NCBI GenBank assembly: GCA_009692585.1
Contig: SHYX01000007.1
Span: 1 to 64,000, forward strand
Source: Myxococcales bacterium
GTDB lineage: Bacteria > Myxococcota > UBA796 > SXON01
Direction: 5' to 3'
DNA: 64,000 bases
Shown here piece by piece: positions 32,740 to 48,717 of the stretch. Under the pieces are notes generated by a model, which saw nothing but the letters and a program-made list of their open reading frames with translations, did not search any database and was not told where the DNA came from. The stretch's first letter is position 1; each line of letters starts with the position of its first letter. Made by a program: the position numbers and the translations under genes.

Positions 32740-33855
32740 CTAGTACGGCGCCGACGCGCAGCGTAGGCCGATCGTTCCCTTGAAGTCAGGGGTGTGCTCA
32801 TGCAAGTTCGCGGCCATCGTGCAGGCCAACGGCGAACCGGTGTAGTAGGCGCATCCGCGCTTGCTGGTAAGCGGCATGCCCTCGCGGACGTCGTCCAGAA
32901 CGAACCGCACGATCTCGGCGTCGTCGATGGTGAGGGTCACCGCCAGGTAGGTGTCGGCGAGCGTGGACGACGGGGAGTTGTTCATCAGGTACCCGGCCAT
33001 GGAGATGTCGTCGGACCGAGCGAGTCGGCTGGCGTCCAGGCTGACCAGGCCGTCGGCATCCACCTGCGGCTGCAGCGTAAAAAACACCACGCCGCGATAG
33101 ACGAGCCAGGACACGTCGCCGTCCGTGGACCGGAGCTGGCCCTCCGCTCCGAGCTCGACGCCGTGGCCCTCGGCCGCGGCCCGTGCGAACCAGGCGTCGC
33201 GATCGCTGTCCTCCTGGGGATCGACCCACTCCCACGCGTTGCCGATCTGATCGTACACCCCGAACACGCTCACACAGCCCGGCGCGGACCCCGTGAGCTG
33301 GAGCGCGTCGAACTGAGGCACCCCGAGGCTGTCGGGAAGCATGCAAACGCCCTCTTCCGGCGCGTCGCCGTAGGGGAAACGCCGTCCGCCATCACCGACG
33401 ATCCCGTCCCCGGCGTCCTCCCATTCGGCGTCGGTCGCCAGGTGTTTGAAGCCGACGACGTCCCCGGCCTCGGACAGCACCGGTGTCGCTTCGCAGGCCG
33501 CCCGGGCCTCGACGAAGGAGATATCCACCGCGGGCAGGACGCCCGCCACGCTGGTGTAGGTCCCGTCCCCGCTCACCTCGTAGGCGTCGATGCAGTAGAA
33601 CGGGTCGTCGGTGGGCACCGGCACCATTCCCGACGCGCAGCGCGGGCCCGGCTCGGCGGTATCGGCCGAGTCGTCGGAATCCGTCGCAGTGTCCCCGGTC
33701 TCCGTCGCAGTGTCCCCGGTCTCCGTCGCGGTGTCGCCCGTGTCGCGGTCGGTTTCGCCGGTGTCCGTAGACTGCGGTGGGTCGCGATCACCGGTGGGTG
33801 TCGCCACGCAGCCGGGCAACAGGGCAAGCCAGGGCAACGCGGCCAGAATCCACAC
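32740..33855 (-). CDS. SUMF1/FGE-like lipoprotein with Thr/Asp repeat linker
   Basis: A lipoprotein of about 371 residues. GTG 33855, five bases after GGGAG, gives MWILAALPWLALLPGC (lipobox LLPGC). GTG 33861 is an alternative, and a stronger GGAGGAGGT at 33880-33889 sits too far from either. A linker of repeated TGDTATE units is followed by a formylglycine-generating-enzyme-like domain: GMVPVP, FYCIDAYEV, KHLATDAEWEDAG, GGRRFPYGDAP, FGVYDQIGNAWEWVDP and a terminal RCASAPY. The FGE catalytic Cys pair is not evident. It is divergent from the selenoprotein W gene with only 45 bases between the starts. Confidence 0.78.
   Translation of the reverse strand: MWILAALPWLALLPGCVATPTGDRDPPQSTDTGETDRDTGDTATETGDTATETGDTATDSDDSADTAEPGPRCASGMVPVPTDDPFYCIDAYEVSGDGTYTSVAGVLPAVDISFVEARAACEATPVLSEAGDVVGFKHLATDAEWEDAGDGIVGDGGRRFPYGDAPEEGVCMLPDSLGVPQFDALQLTGSAPGCVSVFGVYDQIGNAWEWVDPQEDSDRDAWFARAAAEGHGVELGAEGQLRSTDGDVSWLVYRGVVFFTLQPQVDADGLVSLDASRLARSDDISMAGYLMNNSPSSTLADTYLAVTLTIDDAEIVRFVLDDVREGMPLTSKRGCAYYTGSPLACTMAANLHEHTPDFKGTIGLRCASAPY
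33681..33745 (-). repeat. 21-base tandem repeat encoding the TATETGD linker
   Basis: Two exact 21-base copies (33681-33701 and 33702-33722) and a degenerate third encode Thr-Ala-Thr-Glu-Thr-Gly-Asp units between the lipobox and the folded domain of the SUMF1-like lipoprotein. The period is a multiple of three, so copy-number change would preserve the frame. Confidence 0.75.
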
Positions 33856-33900
33856 TTCCACTCCCAGCGACGCGATGATACCTCCTCCCGAGGAGAGGTC

Positions 33901-34140
33901 ATGTCCCGCGTCGTCATTACGTACTGCACCGCCTGAGGCTACCTTCCGCACGCCAGCCGGGCGCTGGAATCCCTGCGGGAGGAGTTGCAGATCGAGTCCG
34001 AGCTGGTCCCGGGGCGGGGCGGGGTATTCACCATCGAGGTCGACGGTCGCACCGTCGCGAAAAAGACCATCGAGGGTTTCCCGACGACCGAGGACATCGT
34101 CCGTAGCGTCGCGCAGGCCTTGGCGCAGGGGTCGGCGTAG
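33901..34140 (+). CDS. Selenoprotein W-like (Rdx family), in-frame UGA = selenocysteine
   Basis: ATG 33901 is preceded by gaggagaggtc, a strong ribosome binding site. The frame reads MSRVVITYCTA, TGA (33934-33936), GYLPHASRALESLREELQ... to a TAG at 34140, 79 residues if the UGA is selenocysteine. The sequence matches the thioredoxin-like Rdx family: CxxU at residues 9-12, aligned with the CxxU of vertebrate SelW (YCGAUGY), a central VPGRGGVFTIEVDG strand pair, AKKTIEGFP and a C-terminal AQALAQG. Downstream of the UGA codon usage and homology continue without interruption, which rules out a simple stop. A hairpin suitable as bacterial SECIS starts 9 bases after the UGA. Predicted role: small redox protein. 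SelA, SelB, SelD and tRNA-Sec are not in this window. Confidence 0.88.
33946..33978 (+). promoter_or_regulatory. Candidate bacterial SECIS hairpin for selenocysteine insertion
   Basis: Nine bases after the UGA the RNA can form an outer stem CCGCA/UGCGG (33946-33950 with 33974-33978) and an inner stem CCAGC/GCUGG (33953-33957 with 33963-33967), closed by the loop CGGGC. The apical loop begins 21 bases after the UGA and has a G at its second position, within the spacing and loop rules known for bacterial SECIS elements recognised by SelB. Assigned by eye; no folding energy was computed. Confidence 0.65.
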
Positions 34141-34145
34141 GCCGG

Positions 34146-34874
34146 CTATCCGCACGGCAACCGGCGTATCCAGGCCCCATACACGGGCTGCCCCGCCCTT
34201 TGGAACTTCGCCTGGTACCCGGTCACGATGTCATCGGGCCAGGGCGCACCTGCTCTGCCGATGTCGTCGCTGGCGCCAATGATCGTCCAGGTCGGCGAGG
34301 CCGCCACCGCGGCGAGCAGGGCCCGATGATGGCCGTCGAAGTCCGTCTTGAGGCGCAGCTCGCCGCCGGGTGCCACGACGCGGCCCGCGCCCTCGAGAAA
34401 GCCCGGCGTGATCAGGCGGTGTTTGGCATCGCTGGGATGCGACCAGGGGTCGGGGTGGTTGATGTGGATCCCGGCCAGCTCCCCGGTGGCGAAGAGTCGC
34501 TCCAACTCGAACCAGGAGTACCGTGCCACCCGGGCATTGGTCGCCCCCGCTGCACGCAGCTTCTCCGCGGCCTGGACGCATCGTTTGTACCGGATTTCCA
34601 GACCGATCCAGTCCCCCGCCGGGGCGCGGGCCGCCGACGCGGCGAGCCAGCTCCCGTTGCCGACCCCCAGCTCCAGGTGCCGGGGAGCATCGCGACCAAA
34701 CTCCGTGAGCCAACGCCCCTGGTACGATGGTGCCTGCTCCGCAGCGATGATCTCTTTGCCGAAGCGCTGGTGTTCGTCCCGGTAGGGGTTCACCTCCGGC
34801 CTGCTGCCGCGGCCGTGCGCGCGGGTGGAGAAGGGGGCGGCGCTCGGACCGGGACGGCGGTTCATCGCCACCAT
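34146..34874 (-). CDS. trmB: tRNA (guanine-N7)-methyltransferase TrmB
   Basis: A 242-residue class I SAM-dependent methyltransferase that makes m7G46 in tRNA. The SAM-binding motif is LELGVGNGSW, followed by GLEIRYKRC, the TrmB motif region INHPDPWSHPSDAKHRL (FPDPW..KxxHxKRR in other members), GELRLKTDF and the C-terminal GYQAKFQRAGQPVYGAWIRR. The protein starts at ATG 34874 or nine bases later; neither has a clear ribosome binding site. It converges with the selenoprotein gene, 5 bases apart. Upstream (34875-35008) no gene is seen. Confidence 0.92.
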   Translation of the reverse strand: MVAMNRRPGPSAAPFSTRAHGRGSRPEVNPYRDEHQRFGKEIIAAEQAPSYQGRWLTEFGRDAPRHLELGVGNGSWLAASAARAPAGDWIGLEIRYKRCVQAAEKLRAAGATNARVARYSWFELERLFATGELAGIHINHPDPWSHPSDAKHRLITPGFLEGAGRVVAPGGELRLKTDFDGHHRALLAAVAASPTWTIIGASDDIGRAGAPWPDDIVTGYQAKFQRAGQPVYGAWIRRLPCG

Positions 34875-43634: not shown

Positions 43635-43889
43635 TCACTGCCCGGTGAGGGGGCGCGAGACCCCGGGCTCCACGCGGGCGCGGTGCTTGCCGAGCGCCTG
43701 GACGACGGAAGGTCGCAGCGCTCCAGCCGCCCCGGCATCCACGAGCGCCAAGAGCTCCCGCCGCATCCGCGGGTCCCAGAAGCGGCAGAGGTGGTTCGCG
43801 ATGCCTTCGAGCACGGCGTCCGGCTGGGGCTCGCCCTCGAAGAACGCGGCGATCTCGTTGGCCATCTTCACCAGCTTGTCGGTGTTCAT
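43635..43889 (-). CDS. fdsD: NAD-dependent formate dehydrogenase subunit delta
   Basis: An 84-residue protein matching FdsD: KLVKMANEIAAFFEGEPQPDAVLEGIANHLCRFWDPRMRREL is the characteristic segment (positions about 5-46). It is a small accessory subunit of the soluble molybdenum formate dehydrogenase. Its ATG overlaps the fdsA stop by 4 bases (ATGA), consistent with translational coupling. Confidence 0.92.
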   Translation of the reverse strand: MNTDKLVKMANEIAAFFEGEPQPDAVLEGIANHLCRFWDPRMRRELLALVDAGAAGALRPSVVQALGKHRARVEPGVSRPLTGQ

Positions 43890-46726
43890 CTTCGGTCCGC
43901 ATGGGGCACCAGCGCCGCCTGCGCCTGCTCGACGTCGGCGAAGCGGCGCTGCCAGGTGCTCGGCGCCTCGGCCAGCGACACCTGCACCGCGGTGACCTTG
44001 TACTCAGGGCAGTTGGTGGCCCAGTCGGAGTTCTCGGTGGTGACCACGTTGGCGCCGCTCTCGGGGTGATGAAAAGTCGTATAGACGACCCCGGGCTGCA
44101 CCCGCTCGGTGATCTCCACGTGCAGCGTCGTTTCTCCTTGGCGAGAGACCACCCGGACCCGGTCTCCAGCCTGGATTCCCCGCTGTTCGGCGTCGTGCGG
44201 GTGCAACTCCAGCACATCCTCGTCGTGCCACTCGATGTTGCGCGTGCGGCGGGTCTGGGCGCCGACGTTGTATTGGCTGAGGATGCGCCCGGTGGTGAGC
44301 AACAACGGAAAGCGACGGCTGGTCCGCTCTTCGGTGGGCACGTACTCGGTGACCACGAACCTGCCCTTGCCGCGCACGAACCGGTCGATGTGCATGACCG
44401 GCGTTCCGTTGGGCGCCGCATCGTTGCAGGGCCACTGGATGCTGCCGAGCCGATCGAGCTTTTCGTAACTGACTCCGGTGAAGGTGGGCGTGAGGCTCGC
44501 GATCTCGGCCATGATCTGCGCCGGGTGGTCGTAGTGCATGGGGTAGCCCAGCGCCTGCGCGAACCGAACCGTGATCTCCCAGTCGGCGAGGCCGGTCAAC
44601 GGGGGCATGACCTTGCGGACGCGCGAGATGCGGCGCTCAGCGTTGGTGAAGGTGCCGTCCTTCTCCAGGAAGGACGAGCCCGGAAAGAAGACATGCGCGT
44701 ACTTGGCGGTCTCGTTGAGGAACAGGTCCTGGACGATGACACACTCCATGGCTTCCATTGCGGCAATGACGTGCTGGGTGTCGGGATCGGACTGCACGAT
44801 GTCTTCGCCCTGGACGTACAGCGCCCGGAAGGAACCGTCATGCGCGGCGTCGAACATGTTCGGGATGCGCAGCCCCGGCTCCGAGTCGAGGGTCACGCCC
44901 CACACGCCCTCGAAAAGGCCCCGCACGGCGCCGTCGCTGACGTGTCGATAGCCGGGAAGCTCGTGTGGGAAGCTGCCCATGTCGCAGGCGCCCTGCACGT
45001 TGTTCTGGCCGCGCAGGGGATTGACGCCCACGCCGTCGCGACCGATGTTGCCGGTGGCCATCGCGAGGTTGGCGATGCCCATCACCATCGTCGAGCCCTG
45101 GCTGTGTTCGGTGACACCGAGCCCGTAGTAGATCGCCCCGTTGCCAGCGCTGCCGTAGAGGCGCGCCGCCCCGCGGATGTCGGCCGCGGGGACGCCGGTG
45201 ACCGACTCCATCGCCTCTGGCGAGTTGCGGTCGAGCGAGACGAAACTTTTCCACTTTTCGTACTCGGCCACGTCGCAACGCTGCTGAATGTACTCCTCGC
45301 GGACGAGACCCTCGGTCACCACCACATGGGCGATCGCGTTGATGAGCGCAACGTTGGTGCCGGGACGGAGGGGCAGGTGGTAGTCGGCTTCGACGTGGGC
45401 GGAGCGCACCAGGGCGGTGGCGCGCGGGTCGATGATGATGAGTCGGGCGCCCTGGCGGAGGCGGCGCTTCATCTGCGAGGCGAAGACCGGGTGGGCGTCG
45501 GGCGGGTTGGCGCCGATGACCACGATGACGTCCGCTTTCATCACCGAATCGAACTGCTGGGTGCCGGCCGACTCACCGAGTGTCGTCTTCAGGCCGTACC
45601 CGGTGGGCGAGTGACAGACGCGCGCGCAGGTGTCGACGTTGTTGTTGCCGAAGGCGGCGCGCACCAACTTCTGCACCAGGAATGTCTCTTCGTTGGTGCA
45701 GCGCGAGGAGGTGATGCCCCCGACCGAACCCCGCCCGTAGGTCGCCTGGATGCGCTTCATCTCGCCGGCGGCGTGGGCGAAGGCCTCCTCCCAGCTGACC
45801 GAGCGCCAGGGATCGGTGATCTTCGCCCGGATCATCGGGAGCTTCATCCGGTCGGGGTGGGAGGCGTACCCCCAGGCGAAGCGGCCCTTGACGCAGGAGT
45901 GTCCGTGATTGGCGTGCCCGTCCTTGTTCGGGACCATGCGCACCACCTCGTTGCCCTGCATCTCGGCACGGAACGAACAGCCGACCCCACAGTAGGCGCA
46001 GGTGGTCACCACGCTGTGATCGGGCTGACCGGCGTCGATCAGCGACTTCTCCATGAGCGTCGCGGTCGGGCAGGCCTGGACACACGCACCACAGCTGACA
46101 CACTCCGAGGACAAGAAATCTCCCGCCCCCGGGGCAATGGTCGAAGCGAACCCGCGGCCAGCCACGGTGAGCGCGAAGGTGCCCTGAACCTCCTCGCAGG
46201 CGCGCACGCAGCGCGAACACACGATGCACTTGGTGGGGTCAAAGCTGAAATAGGGATTGGATTCGTCCTTTTCTGCCTTCAGGTGGTTTTCGCCCTCGTA
46301 GCCGTAGCGGACCTCGCGCAGACCGACGACGCCGGCCATCTCCTGGAGCTCACAGTTTCCGTTGGCCGGACAGGTGAGGCAGTCGAGCGGGTGGTCGGAG
46401 ATGTAGAGCTCCATCGTGTTGCGTCGGAGTTTGGCCAACGCTGGCGACTGGGTGTGCACCTTCATCCCGGGCTCGGCGAGCGTGGTGCAGGAAGCGGGAA
46501 AGCCGCGCCGACCCTCGATCTGCACGACGCACAGCCGGCAGGATCCGAAGGCCTCCAGGCTGTCGGTGGCGCACAGCTTGGGTACGCGAACTCCCGCCTC
46601 GACCGCGGCGCGCATGAGGGAGGTCCCACGGGGAACCTCGACCATGACCCCGTCGATTTCGACGCGGACGCCTTCCGGGTGCACGCGGAGGGGAGTGCCT
46701 GAGTCGGGTTCTTTGACGGAGTACAT
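43886..46726 (-). CDS. fdsA: NAD-dependent formate dehydrogenase subunit alpha (Mo-bisMGD)
   Basis: The 946-residue catalytic subunit that oxidises formate to CO2. It has an N-terminal [2Fe-2S] ferredoxin domain (CATDSLEAFGSCRLCVVQIEG), a His-Cys3 cluster region (HPLDCLTCPANGNCELQ), two 4Fe-4S motifs (CIVCSRCVRACEE, CVSCGACVQACPT) and a prosthetic-group-near cluster (CAYCGVGC). The molybdopterin domain follows. The active-site residue is Cys371 in ARVCHSPTGYG, so this is the cysteine form, not the selenocysteine form. The C-terminal dinucleotide-binding domain includes TGRILSQYNVGAQTRRT. It is cytoplasmic, in complex with FdsB, FdsG and FdsD. Confidence 0.97.
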   Translation of the reverse strand: MYSVKEPDSGTPLRVHPEGVRVEIDGVMVEVPRGTSLMRAAVEAGVRVPKLCATDSLEAFGSCRLCVVQIEGRRGFPASCTTLAEPGMKVHTQSPALAKLRRNTMELYISDHPLDCLTCPANGNCELQEMAGVVGLREVRYGYEGENHLKAEKDESNPYFSFDPTKCIVCSRCVRACEEVQGTFALTVAGRGFASTIAPGAGDFLSSECVSCGACVQACPTATLMEKSLIDAGQPDHSVVTTCAYCGVGCSFRAEMQGNEVVRMVPNKDGHANHGHSCVKGRFAWGYASHPDRMKLPMIRAKITDPWRSVSWEEAFAHAAGEMKRIQATYGRGSVGGITSSRCTNEETFLVQKLVRAAFGNNNVDTCARVCHSPTGYGLKTTLGESAGTQQFDSVMKADVIVVIGANPPDAHPVFASQMKRRLRQGARLIIIDPRATALVRSAHVEADYHLPLRPGTNVALINAIAHVVVTEGLVREEYIQQRCDVAEYEKWKSFVSLDRNSPEAMESVTGVPAADIRGAARLYGSAGNGAIYYGLGVTEHSQGSTMVMGIANLAMATGNIGRDGVGVNPLRGQNNVQGACDMGSFPHELPGYRHVSDGAVRGLFEGVWGVTLDSEPGLRIPNMFDAAHDGSFRALYVQGEDIVQSDPDTQHVIAAMEAMECVIVQDLFLNETAKYAHVFFPGSSFLEKDGTFTNAERRISRVRKVMPPLTGLADWEITVRFAQALGYPMHYDHPAQIMAEIASLTPTFTGVSYEKLDRLGSIQWPCNDAAPNGTPVMHIDRFVRGKGRFVVTEYVPTEERTSRRFPLLLTTGRILSQYNVGAQTRRTRNIEWHDEDVLELHPHDAEQRGIQAGDRVRVVSRQGETTLHVEITERVQPGVVYTTFHHPESGANVVTTENSDWATNCPEYKVTAVQVSLAEAPSTWQRRFADVEQAQAALVPHADRR

Positions 46727-46735
46727 GGAACCTCG

Positions 46736-48271
46736 CTACGAGGGGAGGGGAGCGGCCCTGGGCAGCCCGAAGTCTTCCGGAAAGTGCTGTAGCGCGCTTC
46801 GGACCGGGTAGGGGGTCATGCCCCCCATGGCGCAGAGCGAGCCCTGCTCGAGCGTGTCGCAGAGATCGCGCAACAACGACAACTGCGCGTCGCGACGAGG
46901 ACCGCCGGCCAGGAGTCGGTCGATGACCTCGACTCCACGAACCGACCCGATCCGGCACGGGGTGCACTTGCCGCAGGATTCCACGGCGCAGAACTCCATC
47001 GCGTACCGGGCCATCGCCGCCATGTCGACGGTGTCGTCGAAGACCACGACGCCGCCGTGCCCGATCATGCCGCCGGCCGAGGCGAAGGCCTCGTAGTCCA
47101 ACGGCGTATCGAGGGCGGAAGCGGGAAGATACGGCCCAAGTGGTCCGCCCACCTGCACCGCCCGCACGGGACGCCCCGTGGCGGTCCCGCCCCCGAAATC
47201 GTAGATGAGCTGGCGCAGCGTGAGCCCGAACGGCACCTCGATGAGGCCGCCGCAGCGGATGTTTCCGGCAAGCTGGAACGGGAGGGTACCACGGGAGCGC
47301 CCCATGCCAAACTCGGCGTAGAACGCCCCCCCTCTGTCGAGAATTGTCGGAACGGCCGCCAGCGTCAGCACGTTATTAATCACCGTCGGCTTCCCGAACA
47401 GCCCCGCGACCGCCGGCAGGGGTGGCTTCGGGCGCACCATGCCGCGTTTTCCTTCGAGGCTCTCGAGCATCGCGGTCTCTTCGCCGCAGATGTACGCGCC
47501 GGCGCCGCGGCGGAGGTGGAGCGCAAACGGGCGGCCGCTCCCCGCCACGTTCGCCCCGAGGAAGCCCGCGGCGTTCGCCCGCCGGACGGCCTCCGCGAAG
47601 ACGCGCTCCGCATCGGGGTACTCCGAGCGGATGTAGATGAAGCCCTGGTCCGCGCCGACGGCAAGCCCGGCGATGAGGATCCCTTCGATGAGGAGGTAGG
47701 GGTCGCCTTCCATGACCATGCGGTCCGCGAAGGTGCCCGAGTCGCCCTCGTCGGCGTTGCAGGCGATGTACTTCTGGTCAGCCGGTGTCGCCAGCACCGT
47801 GCGCCACTTGATGCCGGCCGGGAAGGCGGCGCCGCCGCGGCCACGAAGTCCGGACCGCACGACCTCCTCCACGATCGCGGCGCCATCGAGCTGAAGGGCG
47901 GCCTTCAGTCCCTGCCAGCCGCCGGTGGCGGCGTAGGCGTCGAGGTCCAGCGGGTCGTGGAGCCCGGCGCGCGCGAAGGTCAGCCGGCGTTGGCCGGCCA
48001 ACCAGGGGTGGGCGGCGATGAGCCCTTGTCCGAGCGGATGCGCGGCGCCGGTGCGAAGCGAGTCGATCAGAGCAACAATGTCTTCGGTCGCGACCGGTCC
48101 GTAGGCCCTCCGCCCGTTCGGCGTGTCCACCTCGATCAGCGGCTCGAGCCAGAACATCCCGCGCGAGCTGGTGCGGACCACCTCGACGTCGCTGAAGGCA
48201 GCGAGCACAGTCGCGACAGCATCCGCGCCGACGGCCCGCGCGGCCGCGTCGATGGGCACGTAGACTCTCAC
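46736..48271 (-). CDS. fdsB: NAD-dependent formate dehydrogenase subunit beta (diaphorase)
   Basis: A 511-residue NuoF-like flavoprotein that passes electrons from FdsA to NAD+. The N-terminus has a thioredoxin-like segment, followed by the FMN/NADH site (SGLRGRGGAAFPAGIKW, CNADEGDSGTFADR, GAGAYICGEETAMLESLEGKRG) and the 4Fe-4S motif ESCGKCTPCRIGS. GTG 48271 is preceded by ggaggaac and overlaps the fdsG stop as GTGA. It is followed by fdsA after 9 bases. Confidence 0.96.
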   Translation of the reverse strand: MRVYVPIDAAARAVGADAVATVLAAFSDVEVVRTSSRGMFWLEPLIEVDTPNGRRAYGPVATEDIVALIDSLRTGAAHPLGQGLIAAHPWLAGQRRLTFARAGLHDPLDLDAYAATGGWQGLKAALQLDGAAIVEEVVRSGLRGRGGAAFPAGIKWRTVLATPADQKYIACNADEGDSGTFADRMVMEGDPYLLIEGILIAGLAVGADQGFIYIRSEYPDAERVFAEAVRRANAAGFLGANVAGSGRPFALHLRRGAGAYICGEETAMLESLEGKRGMVRPKPPLPAVAGLFGKPTVINNVLTLAAVPTILDRGGAFYAEFGMGRSRGTLPFQLAGNIRCGGLIEVPFGLTLRQLIYDFGGGTATGRPVRAVQVGGPLGPYLPASALDTPLDYEAFASAGGMIGHGGVVVFDDTVDMAAMARYAMEFCAVESCGKCTPCRIGSVRGVEVIDRLLAGGPRRDAQLSLLRDLCDTLEQGSLCAMGGMTPYPVRSALQHFPEDFGLPRAAPLPS

Positions 48272-48717
48272 CGTTCCTCCGCGAATCCGCTCAGCACCTT
48301 GTCCAGGCGCGCGGGCGACAGGCGGGCGACGAGGTGGCCGTCGATCATCCCCGCCGGGGCGCTGGCGCAAAGACCCAGACAGTAGACCGGCTCAAGCGTG
48401 ACGTCGGGCGGCGCCACCCGCTTCAGCAACAGCGCCAGCGCCTCGCCCCCCATGGCCTGACAGGCCTCGGCCCTGCACAGTCGGACCACGTGCCGTCGCG
48501 GCGGGGCGCTGCGAAAGTCGTGGTAGAAGCTGATGACACCGTGGACATCCGCCTGCGAGAGGTTCAGCGCCCTGGCGATGCCCGGTACTGCGCCCGGGGG
48601 CACGTACCCGAGCGCGTCGTGGAGGTGATGCAACAGCGGCAGACAGGCCCCGGCAAGCGCGGCGCAGGCGGCGATGGCATCGTTGACCGCGTCGGTCTCG
48701 GGGGCGGACAGGCTCAC
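48268..48717 (-). CDS. fdsG: NAD-dependent formate dehydrogenase subunit gamma
   Basis: A 149-residue NuoE-like [2Fe-2S] protein and the first gene of the operon. Cluster ligands are CRAEAC (CxxxxC) and CLGLC (CxxxC). The helical domain shows LPLLHHLHDALGYVPPGAVPGIARALNLS and GVISFYHDF. GTG 48717 gives the usual family length; the in-frame extension beyond it is unlike the family. A divergent MFS fragment begins 70 bases upstream, so the operon promoter should lie in 48718-48787, although I could not identify it. Confidence 0.93.
   Translation of the reverse strand: MSLSAPETDAVNDAIAACAALAGACLPLLHHLHDALGYVPPGAVPGIARALNLSQADVHGVISFYHDFRSAPPRRHVVRLCRAEACQAMGGEALALLLKRVAPPDVTLEPVYCLGLCASAPAGMIDGHLVARLSPARLDKVLSGFAEER

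What the first reader, a model, noticed from the sequence alone, without database searches (positions are those of the whole stretch)
33901..34140. Overlooked selenoprotein W gene with in-frame UGA and SECIS-like hairpin
Seen: a strong ribosome binding site, an 11-codon start, TGA in a CxxU context, then 67 sense codons before TAG. The sequence on both sides of the TGA fits the Rdx/SelW family, including YCxAUGY, a GVFxIxVDG strand and a C-terminal ALAQG. A two-part hairpin begins 9 bases after the UGA. Standard gene callers stop at the TGA and miss the gene. It implies a selenocysteine machinery in this genome.
Basis: partly seen in the sequence, partly recalled or inferred. Interest (0 to 1): 0.85.

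Follow-up and report, generated by a model that had tools for sequence, protein, structure and literature searches.

The report
Unannotated bacterial selenoprotein W gene
A small redox-protein gene that a gene caller cut short very probably uses the stop codon UGA to insert the rare amino acid selenocysteine, as related bacterial genes do; it is a solid new example of a known kind of gene.

Summary
Window 33901-34140 (+) encodes a 79-residue Rdx/SelW protein (Pfam 48.7 bits, cut-off 22.6) with UGA at codon 12 in a CxxU motif and a bacterial SECIS-type hairpin after it. The window's own genome is not held, so its Sec machinery could not be tested. The two closest genomes found (RarA 92% and 90%) carry the orthologue (75% and 81%) with the UGA and like neighbours. 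Both have tRNA-Sec, SelA and SelD; SelB is whole in one and partial in the other. In 74 relative loci read, nearly all picked for holding a TGA, it stands at the Sec site. The hairpin covaries; at least four of five apical pairs form in 75 of 75 Sec sequences against 2 of 17 Cys homologues. Codons after the UGA are under purifying selection. SelW-like bacterial selenoproteins have been in print since at least 2005, so this is a new member of a known kind, overlooked (a 58-residue fragment is listed) and widespread in its phylum.

The parts
33901..34140 (+). selW-like (Rdx family) selenoprotein gene, 79 residues with Sec at residue 12, stop TAG
33890..33898 (+). Shine-Dalgarno-like GAGGAGAGG, ending 2 bases before the ATG
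   Evidence: by sequence only
33934..33936 (+). in-frame UGA read as selenocysteine (C9-T-A-U12)
   Evidence: same place in the window and the 74 relative loci read (nearly all picked because a TGA had been reported in them)
33943..33981 (+). bacterial SECIS hairpin: outer stem 33943-33950 with 33974-33981; apical stem 33953-33957 with 33963-33967
   Evidence: the outer stem is supported in the near group only
33958..33962 (+). SECIS apical loop CGGGC; G at loop position 2 followed by G
   Evidence: G then G/U in 75 of 75 Sec sequences, but also in 14 of 17 Cys homologues, so it does not discriminate
32740..34155 (-). longest minus-strand ORF (FGE-sulfatase-type protein, probably a lipoprotein); its true start is likely near 33850, so that the gene is a divergent neighbour of selW; like neighbours in L132 and L133
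   Evidence: start and lipoprotein nature inferred by eye
34146..34874 (-). Methyltransf_4 (trmB-like) gene, convergent neighbour; like neighbours in L132 and L133
   Evidence: L133 by position, length and strand only

Best explanation
This is a functional gene for a bacterial SelW-like selenoprotein. The ribosome starts at the ATG (33901). At UGA codon 12, SelB carrying GTP and Sec-tRNA-Sec binds the SECIS hairpin just downstream and inserts selenocysteine instead of letting release factor 2 end the chain. The remaining 67 residues are then made, and the protein folds as a small thioredoxin-like domain with a Cys9-x-x-Sec12 redox centre. Shown here by computation: the gene, the conserved UGA, the covarying hairpin, purifying selection, the predicted fold, and Sec machinery in the nearest genomes found. 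Inferred: actual Sec insertion, a working Sec system in this organism, and a thiol/selenol redox role.
For: Rdx 48.7 bits, cut-off 22.6; TIGR02174 43.4 bits, cut-off 34.2. Matches in 118 of 282 genomes of the phylum sample, 107 of them with a TGA-bearing match by my tally. SECIS: 13 pairs, 87.3% of cells paired (slid controls 39.5-61.3%), 7 of 13 pairs with a change on both sides (reached in 5 of 500 shuffles), covariation score reached in 0 of 500. At least four of five apical pairs in 75 of 75 Sec sequences against 2 of 17 distinct Cys homologues. dN/dS after the UGA 0.119/0.647 and 0.160/0.569 to the two closest orthologues found. tRNA-Sec with anticodon UCA in both closest genomes; SelA and SelD in both; SelB whole in G176, a C-terminal piece in G118. 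Model pLDDT 94.4; Foldseek ranks 1-10 in the PDB are Rdx-type bacterial proteins with query TM 0.82-0.86.
Against: The window's own genome is not held, and no Sec machinery gene turned up in what was examined of the window (RNA families and tRNAs of the whole window; Pfam on 10 of 43 chosen ORFs). The window hairpin alone is not significant; the synonymous-codon test, run with the window's codon usage, gives p <= 0.05 in 16 of 33 sequences. Two hairpin features do not separate Sec from Cys forms: the middle apical pair forms in 17 of 17 Cys homologues but in 48 of 75 Sec sequences, and the loop G-[G/U] stands in 14 of 17 Cys homologues. The outer stem is no better formed in 42 further Sec loci (0.45) than in the Cys rows (0.53). 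5 of 107 UGA-bearing genomes showed neither a strong tRNA-Sec nor a strong SelB match. G001, 71% in RarA, has the machinery but no SelW match. No experiment.
Confidence: 0.97

Rival explanations
1. The TGA is a true stop and the rest is a decaying pseudogene.
For: The standard code reads TGA as stop; 23 of 43 chosen window ORFs end in TGA.
Against: TGA at the same site in the 74 relative loci read; dN/dS far below 1 after the TGA and no gap against the two closest orthologues; the Rdx match spans the TGA.
Confidence: 0.01
2. The real product is the 58-residue piece that begins after the UGA (as in the database entry P0002), made from its own start.
For: That fragment is what the protein collection lists, on a 125,377-base contig.
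Against: It lacks the first strand and the CxxU centre; the N-terminal codons, the UGA and the hairpin, which begins before the fragment's start, are conserved.
Confidence: 0.01
3. UGA is read as another amino acid (for example Trp or Gly) because the organism uses a different code.
For: Little beyond an open frame; one database relative, P0009, has Trp at the Sec position.
Against: 23 of 43 chosen window ORFs end in TGA; the site aligns with Cys in other homologues; the UCA-anticodon tRNA of the closest genomes is tRNA-Sec; the hairpin fits the SECIS model.
Confidence: 0.005

Closest known systems
SelW-like bacterial selenoproteins (Rdx family, PF10262; TIGR02174)
   Same: CxxU motif, size, Rdx domain, downstream bacterial SECIS; reported for example in Desulfotalea psychrophila and Geobacter sulfurreducens (PMC1794560, passages seen) and as 48 unique Sargasso Sea sequences (PMC1088965, passages seen)
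   Different: From a lineage, probably Myxococcota, for which my searches showed no SelW report; below the NF041051 equivalog cut-off (65.1 against 88 bits)
Cys-type Rdx proteins of bacteria (PDB 3dex, 2oka, 2fa8, 2obk, 2p0g)
   Same: Fold, query TM 0.80-0.86, and sequence profile; CxxC seen at the Sec site in database relatives
   Different: Cys instead of Sec (for the PDB entries themselves seen only for 3dex); at least four of five apical SECIS pairs in only 2 of 17 Cys homologues of the phylum sample
Mammalian SelW (PDB 2npb)
   Same: Same sequence family and fold (query TM 0.66)
   Different: Distant in sequence; eukaryotic SECIS elements lie in 3' UTRs (PMC1088965, passage seen)

Membership tests
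Rdx / SelW family | Sequence match above the curated cut-off | tested here: met
   PF10262 48.7 against 22.6 bits; TIGR02174 43.4 against 34.2
Rdx / SelW family | CxxC/CxxU redox motif after the first strand | tested here: met
   C9-T-A-U12; columns Y8, C9 and C/U12 invariant in A2, 31 sequences
Rdx / SelW family | Small thioredoxin-like fold | tested here: met
   Predicted model only: pLDDT 94.4; Foldseek ranks 1-23 are Rdx-type entries including MIEN1 and mouse SelW, then thioredoxins
Rdx / SelW family | Redox activity | not testable with these tools
   No biochemistry
NF041051 SelTWH_Campy equivalog | Score above curated cut-off | tested here: not met
   65.1 against 88 bits
Bacterial selenoprotein gene | In-frame UGA conserved at a Cys/Sec site | tested here: met
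   Window and 74 loci read, nearly all picked for a reported TGA; Cys in other homologues
Bacterial selenoprotein gene | bSECIS model: 3-9 nt loop, 4-16 bp upper stem, G in first two loop bases, 16-37 nt from UGA, MFE <= -7.5 (PMC13188914, section 5 read) | tested here: met
   5 nt, 5 bp, G at position 2, 21 nt, -17.8 kcal/mol; covariation
Bacterial selenoprotein gene | selA, selB, selD and tRNA-Sec in the same genome | not testable with these tools
   Own genome not held. In the 90-92% RarA relatives: tRNA-Sec, SelA, SelD in both; SelB whole in one, partial in the other
Bacterial selenoprotein gene | Selenium in the protein | not testable with these tools
   Needs 75Se or mass spectrometry

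The most novel reading that the evidence does not exclude
Sec-type SelW is one of the main, long-kept selenoproteins of this phylum, nearly invisible in public annotation because its UGA lies at codon 12. In the group around the window the overlapping SECIS also governs which amino-acid pairs stand at protein residues 19 and 22 (Ser-Leu, Thr-Val, Ala-Ala, Ile-Met), so that an RNA structure shapes the protein's helix. (Odds lowered from 0.4 to 0.35 on re-reading: the middle pair is open in 27 of 75 Sec sequences and formed in 17 of 17 Cys homologues, there because of their Ala/Gly/Glu codons.)
Probability: 0.35. Interest if true: 0.45.

Novelty: new member of a known kind. Interest (0 to 1): 0.3.

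Why it matters
It corrects a gene that the protein collection searched lists only as a 58-residue fragment. It also shows how common the gene is in its group: of 282 genomes sampled in the phylum, 107 carry a UGA-bearing SelW match, so selenium use in these bacteria is easy to undercount. The aligned hairpins give a set for testing how a SECIS inside a coding region constrains a protein. It does not change how Sec insertion is understood.

Tried and rejected
Single-sequence folding as proof of the SECIS: rejected, because the window's z-score is only -1.52 in G+C-rich DNA and p is 0.066 against synonymous-codon shuffles. RNAalifold on A1 returned only the apical hairpin. The outer stem rests on the named-structure count in A1 and is not better formed in the 42 further Sec loci (mean 0.45 of eight pairs) than in the 19 Cys rows (0.53), so beyond the near group only the apical part is supported. 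The loop G-[G/U] pattern was dropped as a discriminating feature (75 of 75 Sec, but 14 of 17 Cys).

Other leads without result: viral contigs gave no relative. Plasmid records gave two distant matches, 37-45% identity, not followed. A crude scan of the window for further CxxU or UxxC frames gave three hits that I judged antisense artefacts and did not test; the scan also missed the gene in hand, so it says nothing about absence.

Weak controls, stated as such: the Cys homologues are a separate subfamily, not close Cys orthologues. The loci read were, but for two (L136, L137), picked because searches reported a TGA in them, so '74 of 74' tells where the TGA stands, not how often it occurs. The co-occurrence table used thresholds that I chose (tRNA-Sec best E <= 1e-10, SelB best E <= 1e-65), was typed by hand, counts draft genomes and is not corrected for kinship. 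The Rfam cut-off for tRNA-Sec was also passed in 5 of 14 control genomes and the SelB cut-off in 2 of 14, and one search scored only 14 candidates per genome. By my reading, the match holds a second stop codon in 13 of the 107 TGA-bearing genomes; I did not check whether that is the gene's own end.

Rows dropped before counts: L081 and L082 were left out of A1 and A2; L090 and L099 were left out of A2. One search counts identical rows once (29 distinct of 31). In one search the duplicates L161 and L162 were dropped (19 Cys rows, 17 distinct). Not all TGA-bearing matches were read.

Full report
What was checked. Read through the UGA, the 79 residues match Pfam Rdx at 48.7 bits against a cut-off of 22.6 and TIGR02174 above its cut-off, but not the NF041051 equivalog. 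The codon-position G+C of 0.63/0.49/0.89 is like that of the chosen ORFs in this 69% G+C window. The protein collection lists, among three matches, a 58-residue piece on a 125,377-base contig that begins after the UGA and is marked as encoded by the window itself.

Where the window comes from. No whole genome is held for it. The phylum sample drawn around G001 (282 genomes) also holds G007, the genome of a locus titled 'Myxococcota bacterium', so the lineage is most likely Myxococcota; this is an inference from one record title.

The gene in relatives. A six-frame search with stop codons read through gave a match in 118 of 282 genomes. By my tally 107 of them have a match with an in-frame TGA and 11 have only matches without. 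The best are G118 (81%) and G176 (75%), each with one TGA, and each of these two genomes has a single Rdx match. In the 74 relative loci whose letters I read, the TGA stands at the Sec site; all but two of these loci had been picked because a TGA was reported in them. Gene order around selW in G118 (L132) is FGE-sulfatase-type gene, selW, a transporter gene (named by eye), trmB-like, deoA-like, that is, the window's order with one gene inserted. In G176 (L133) ORFs of fitting position, length and strand give the window's order without the insertion (no translations compared). After the UGA, dN/dS is 0.119/0.647 to G118 and 0.160/0.569 to G176. Synonymous differences are fewer in the hairpin codons (0.31 and 0.23 per site) than further on (0.48 and 0.46), as an overlapping RNA signal predicts (short stretches, not tested for significance).

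The hairpin. In 31 gapless sequences a 13-pair structure is formed in 87.3% of cells, against 39.5-61.3% when slid by 1 to 3 columns. Seven of 13 pairs show changes on both sides (reached in 5 of 500 shuffles), and the covariation score was reached in 0 of 500 (relatedness is not removed by that control). The apical stem in the near group changes as CCAGC/GCTGG, CCACC/GGTGG, CCGCC/GGCGG and CCATC/GATGG. Across 75 Sec sequences (73 unique) four of the five apical pairs form in every one and the middle pair in 48; in 17 distinct Cys homologues the five pairs form in 3, 6, 17, 10 and 9, from the bottom up. Put together, at least four of five form in 75 of 75 Sec sequences and in 2 of 17 Cys homologues. 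A G followed by G or U stands at loop positions 2-3 in 75 of 75 Sec sequences but also in 14 of 17 Cys homologues, so that feature does not discriminate. The window's hairpin meets each limit of the bacterial SECIS model as printed in PMC13188914 (section 5 read): loop 5 nt, upper stem 5 bp, G at loop position 2, 21 nt from the UGA, -17.8 kcal/mol. Against this, the window hairpin alone is not significant, and the outer stem does not carry over to the more distant relatives.

Sec machinery. In the phylum sample 180 of 282 genomes have tRNA-Sec over the Rfam cut-off and 153 of 282 have SelB over its cut-off; among 14 control genomes 5 and 2 pass the same cut-offs. With my stricter tRNA and looser SelB thresholds, 102 of the 107 UGA-SelW genomes have a strong tRNA-Sec or SelB match, against 72 of the other 175 (Fisher p 1.5e-22, not corrected for kinship); 5 of 107 have neither. 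In 20 chosen genomes (19 with SelW, plus G001) SelA is over the cut-off in 18 and SelD in 19. G176 has SelB at 298 bits. G118 has a C-terminal SelB piece, 81% identical to that of G176; whether a contig end cut it was not checked. tRNA-Sec in G118 and G176 aligns letter for letter alike and bears anticodon UCA. SelD of both is itself interrupted by one TGA. The step from these relatives to the window's organism is inference.

Fold and function. The model (pLDDT 94.4) matches bacterial Rdx-type structures best, then MIEN1, mouse SelW and thioredoxins; sequence searches of the PDB agree. A thiol/selenol redox role follows from the family and motif; no substrate is known from this work.

What is known. 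SelW-like bacterial selenoproteins are reported in PMC1088965 and PMC1794560 (passages seen). The latter counts 10 and says that SelW-like and some other selenoproteins have very few or no Cys forms in Sec-containing organisms; its entry for Anaeromyxobacter dehalogenans names no SelW. [quoted passage not shown] My searches for SelW or selenoproteins with Myxococcota, Myxococcales or Deltaproteobacteria (listings) and term look-ups in PMC5029168, PMC8318568, PMC9312934 and PMC13188914 showed no report of SelW in this phylum; that covers only the open library held. Verdict: a real, overlooked member of a known family.

Noticed in passing
window codons 19 and 22, and the same codons in the loci: Codon 19 pairs with codon 22 in the SECIS and the amino acids covary: of 75 Sec sequences Ala-Ala 28, Thr-Val 13, Ser-Leu 3, Ile-Met 2; but Thr-Ala 15 and Ser-Ala 12, with the middle pair open, also occur.
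   Followed up: partly
G118:C42:39358-40278, G176:C14:111887-112813: selD of the two closest genomes carries one in-frame TGA, as in Sec-type SelD.
   Followed up: no
G134:C546:11297-11757: A match without TGA and a UGA-type SelW match lie side by side on one strand, 23 bases apart, as in a tandem pair.
   Followed up: no
window 43635-48370, minus strand: NAD-type formate dehydrogenase genes (fdsB-, fdsA- and probably fdsD-like); the alpha-subunit ORF of 946 codons is open without a UGA (gene names recalled).
   Followed up: partly
window 33881-33898: CCTCCT and GAGGAGAGG form a short palindrome between the divergent genes, perhaps ribosome-binding sites for both strands.
   Followed up: no
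P0009: A database relative has Trp at the Sec position (YCVPW), perhaps a changed codon or a different code used by the gene caller.
   Followed up: no
G001: Genome at 71% RarA identity has tRNA-Sec, SelA, SelB and SelD matches but no Rdx/SelW match, so the gene may have been lost there or lie in a gap.
   Followed up: no
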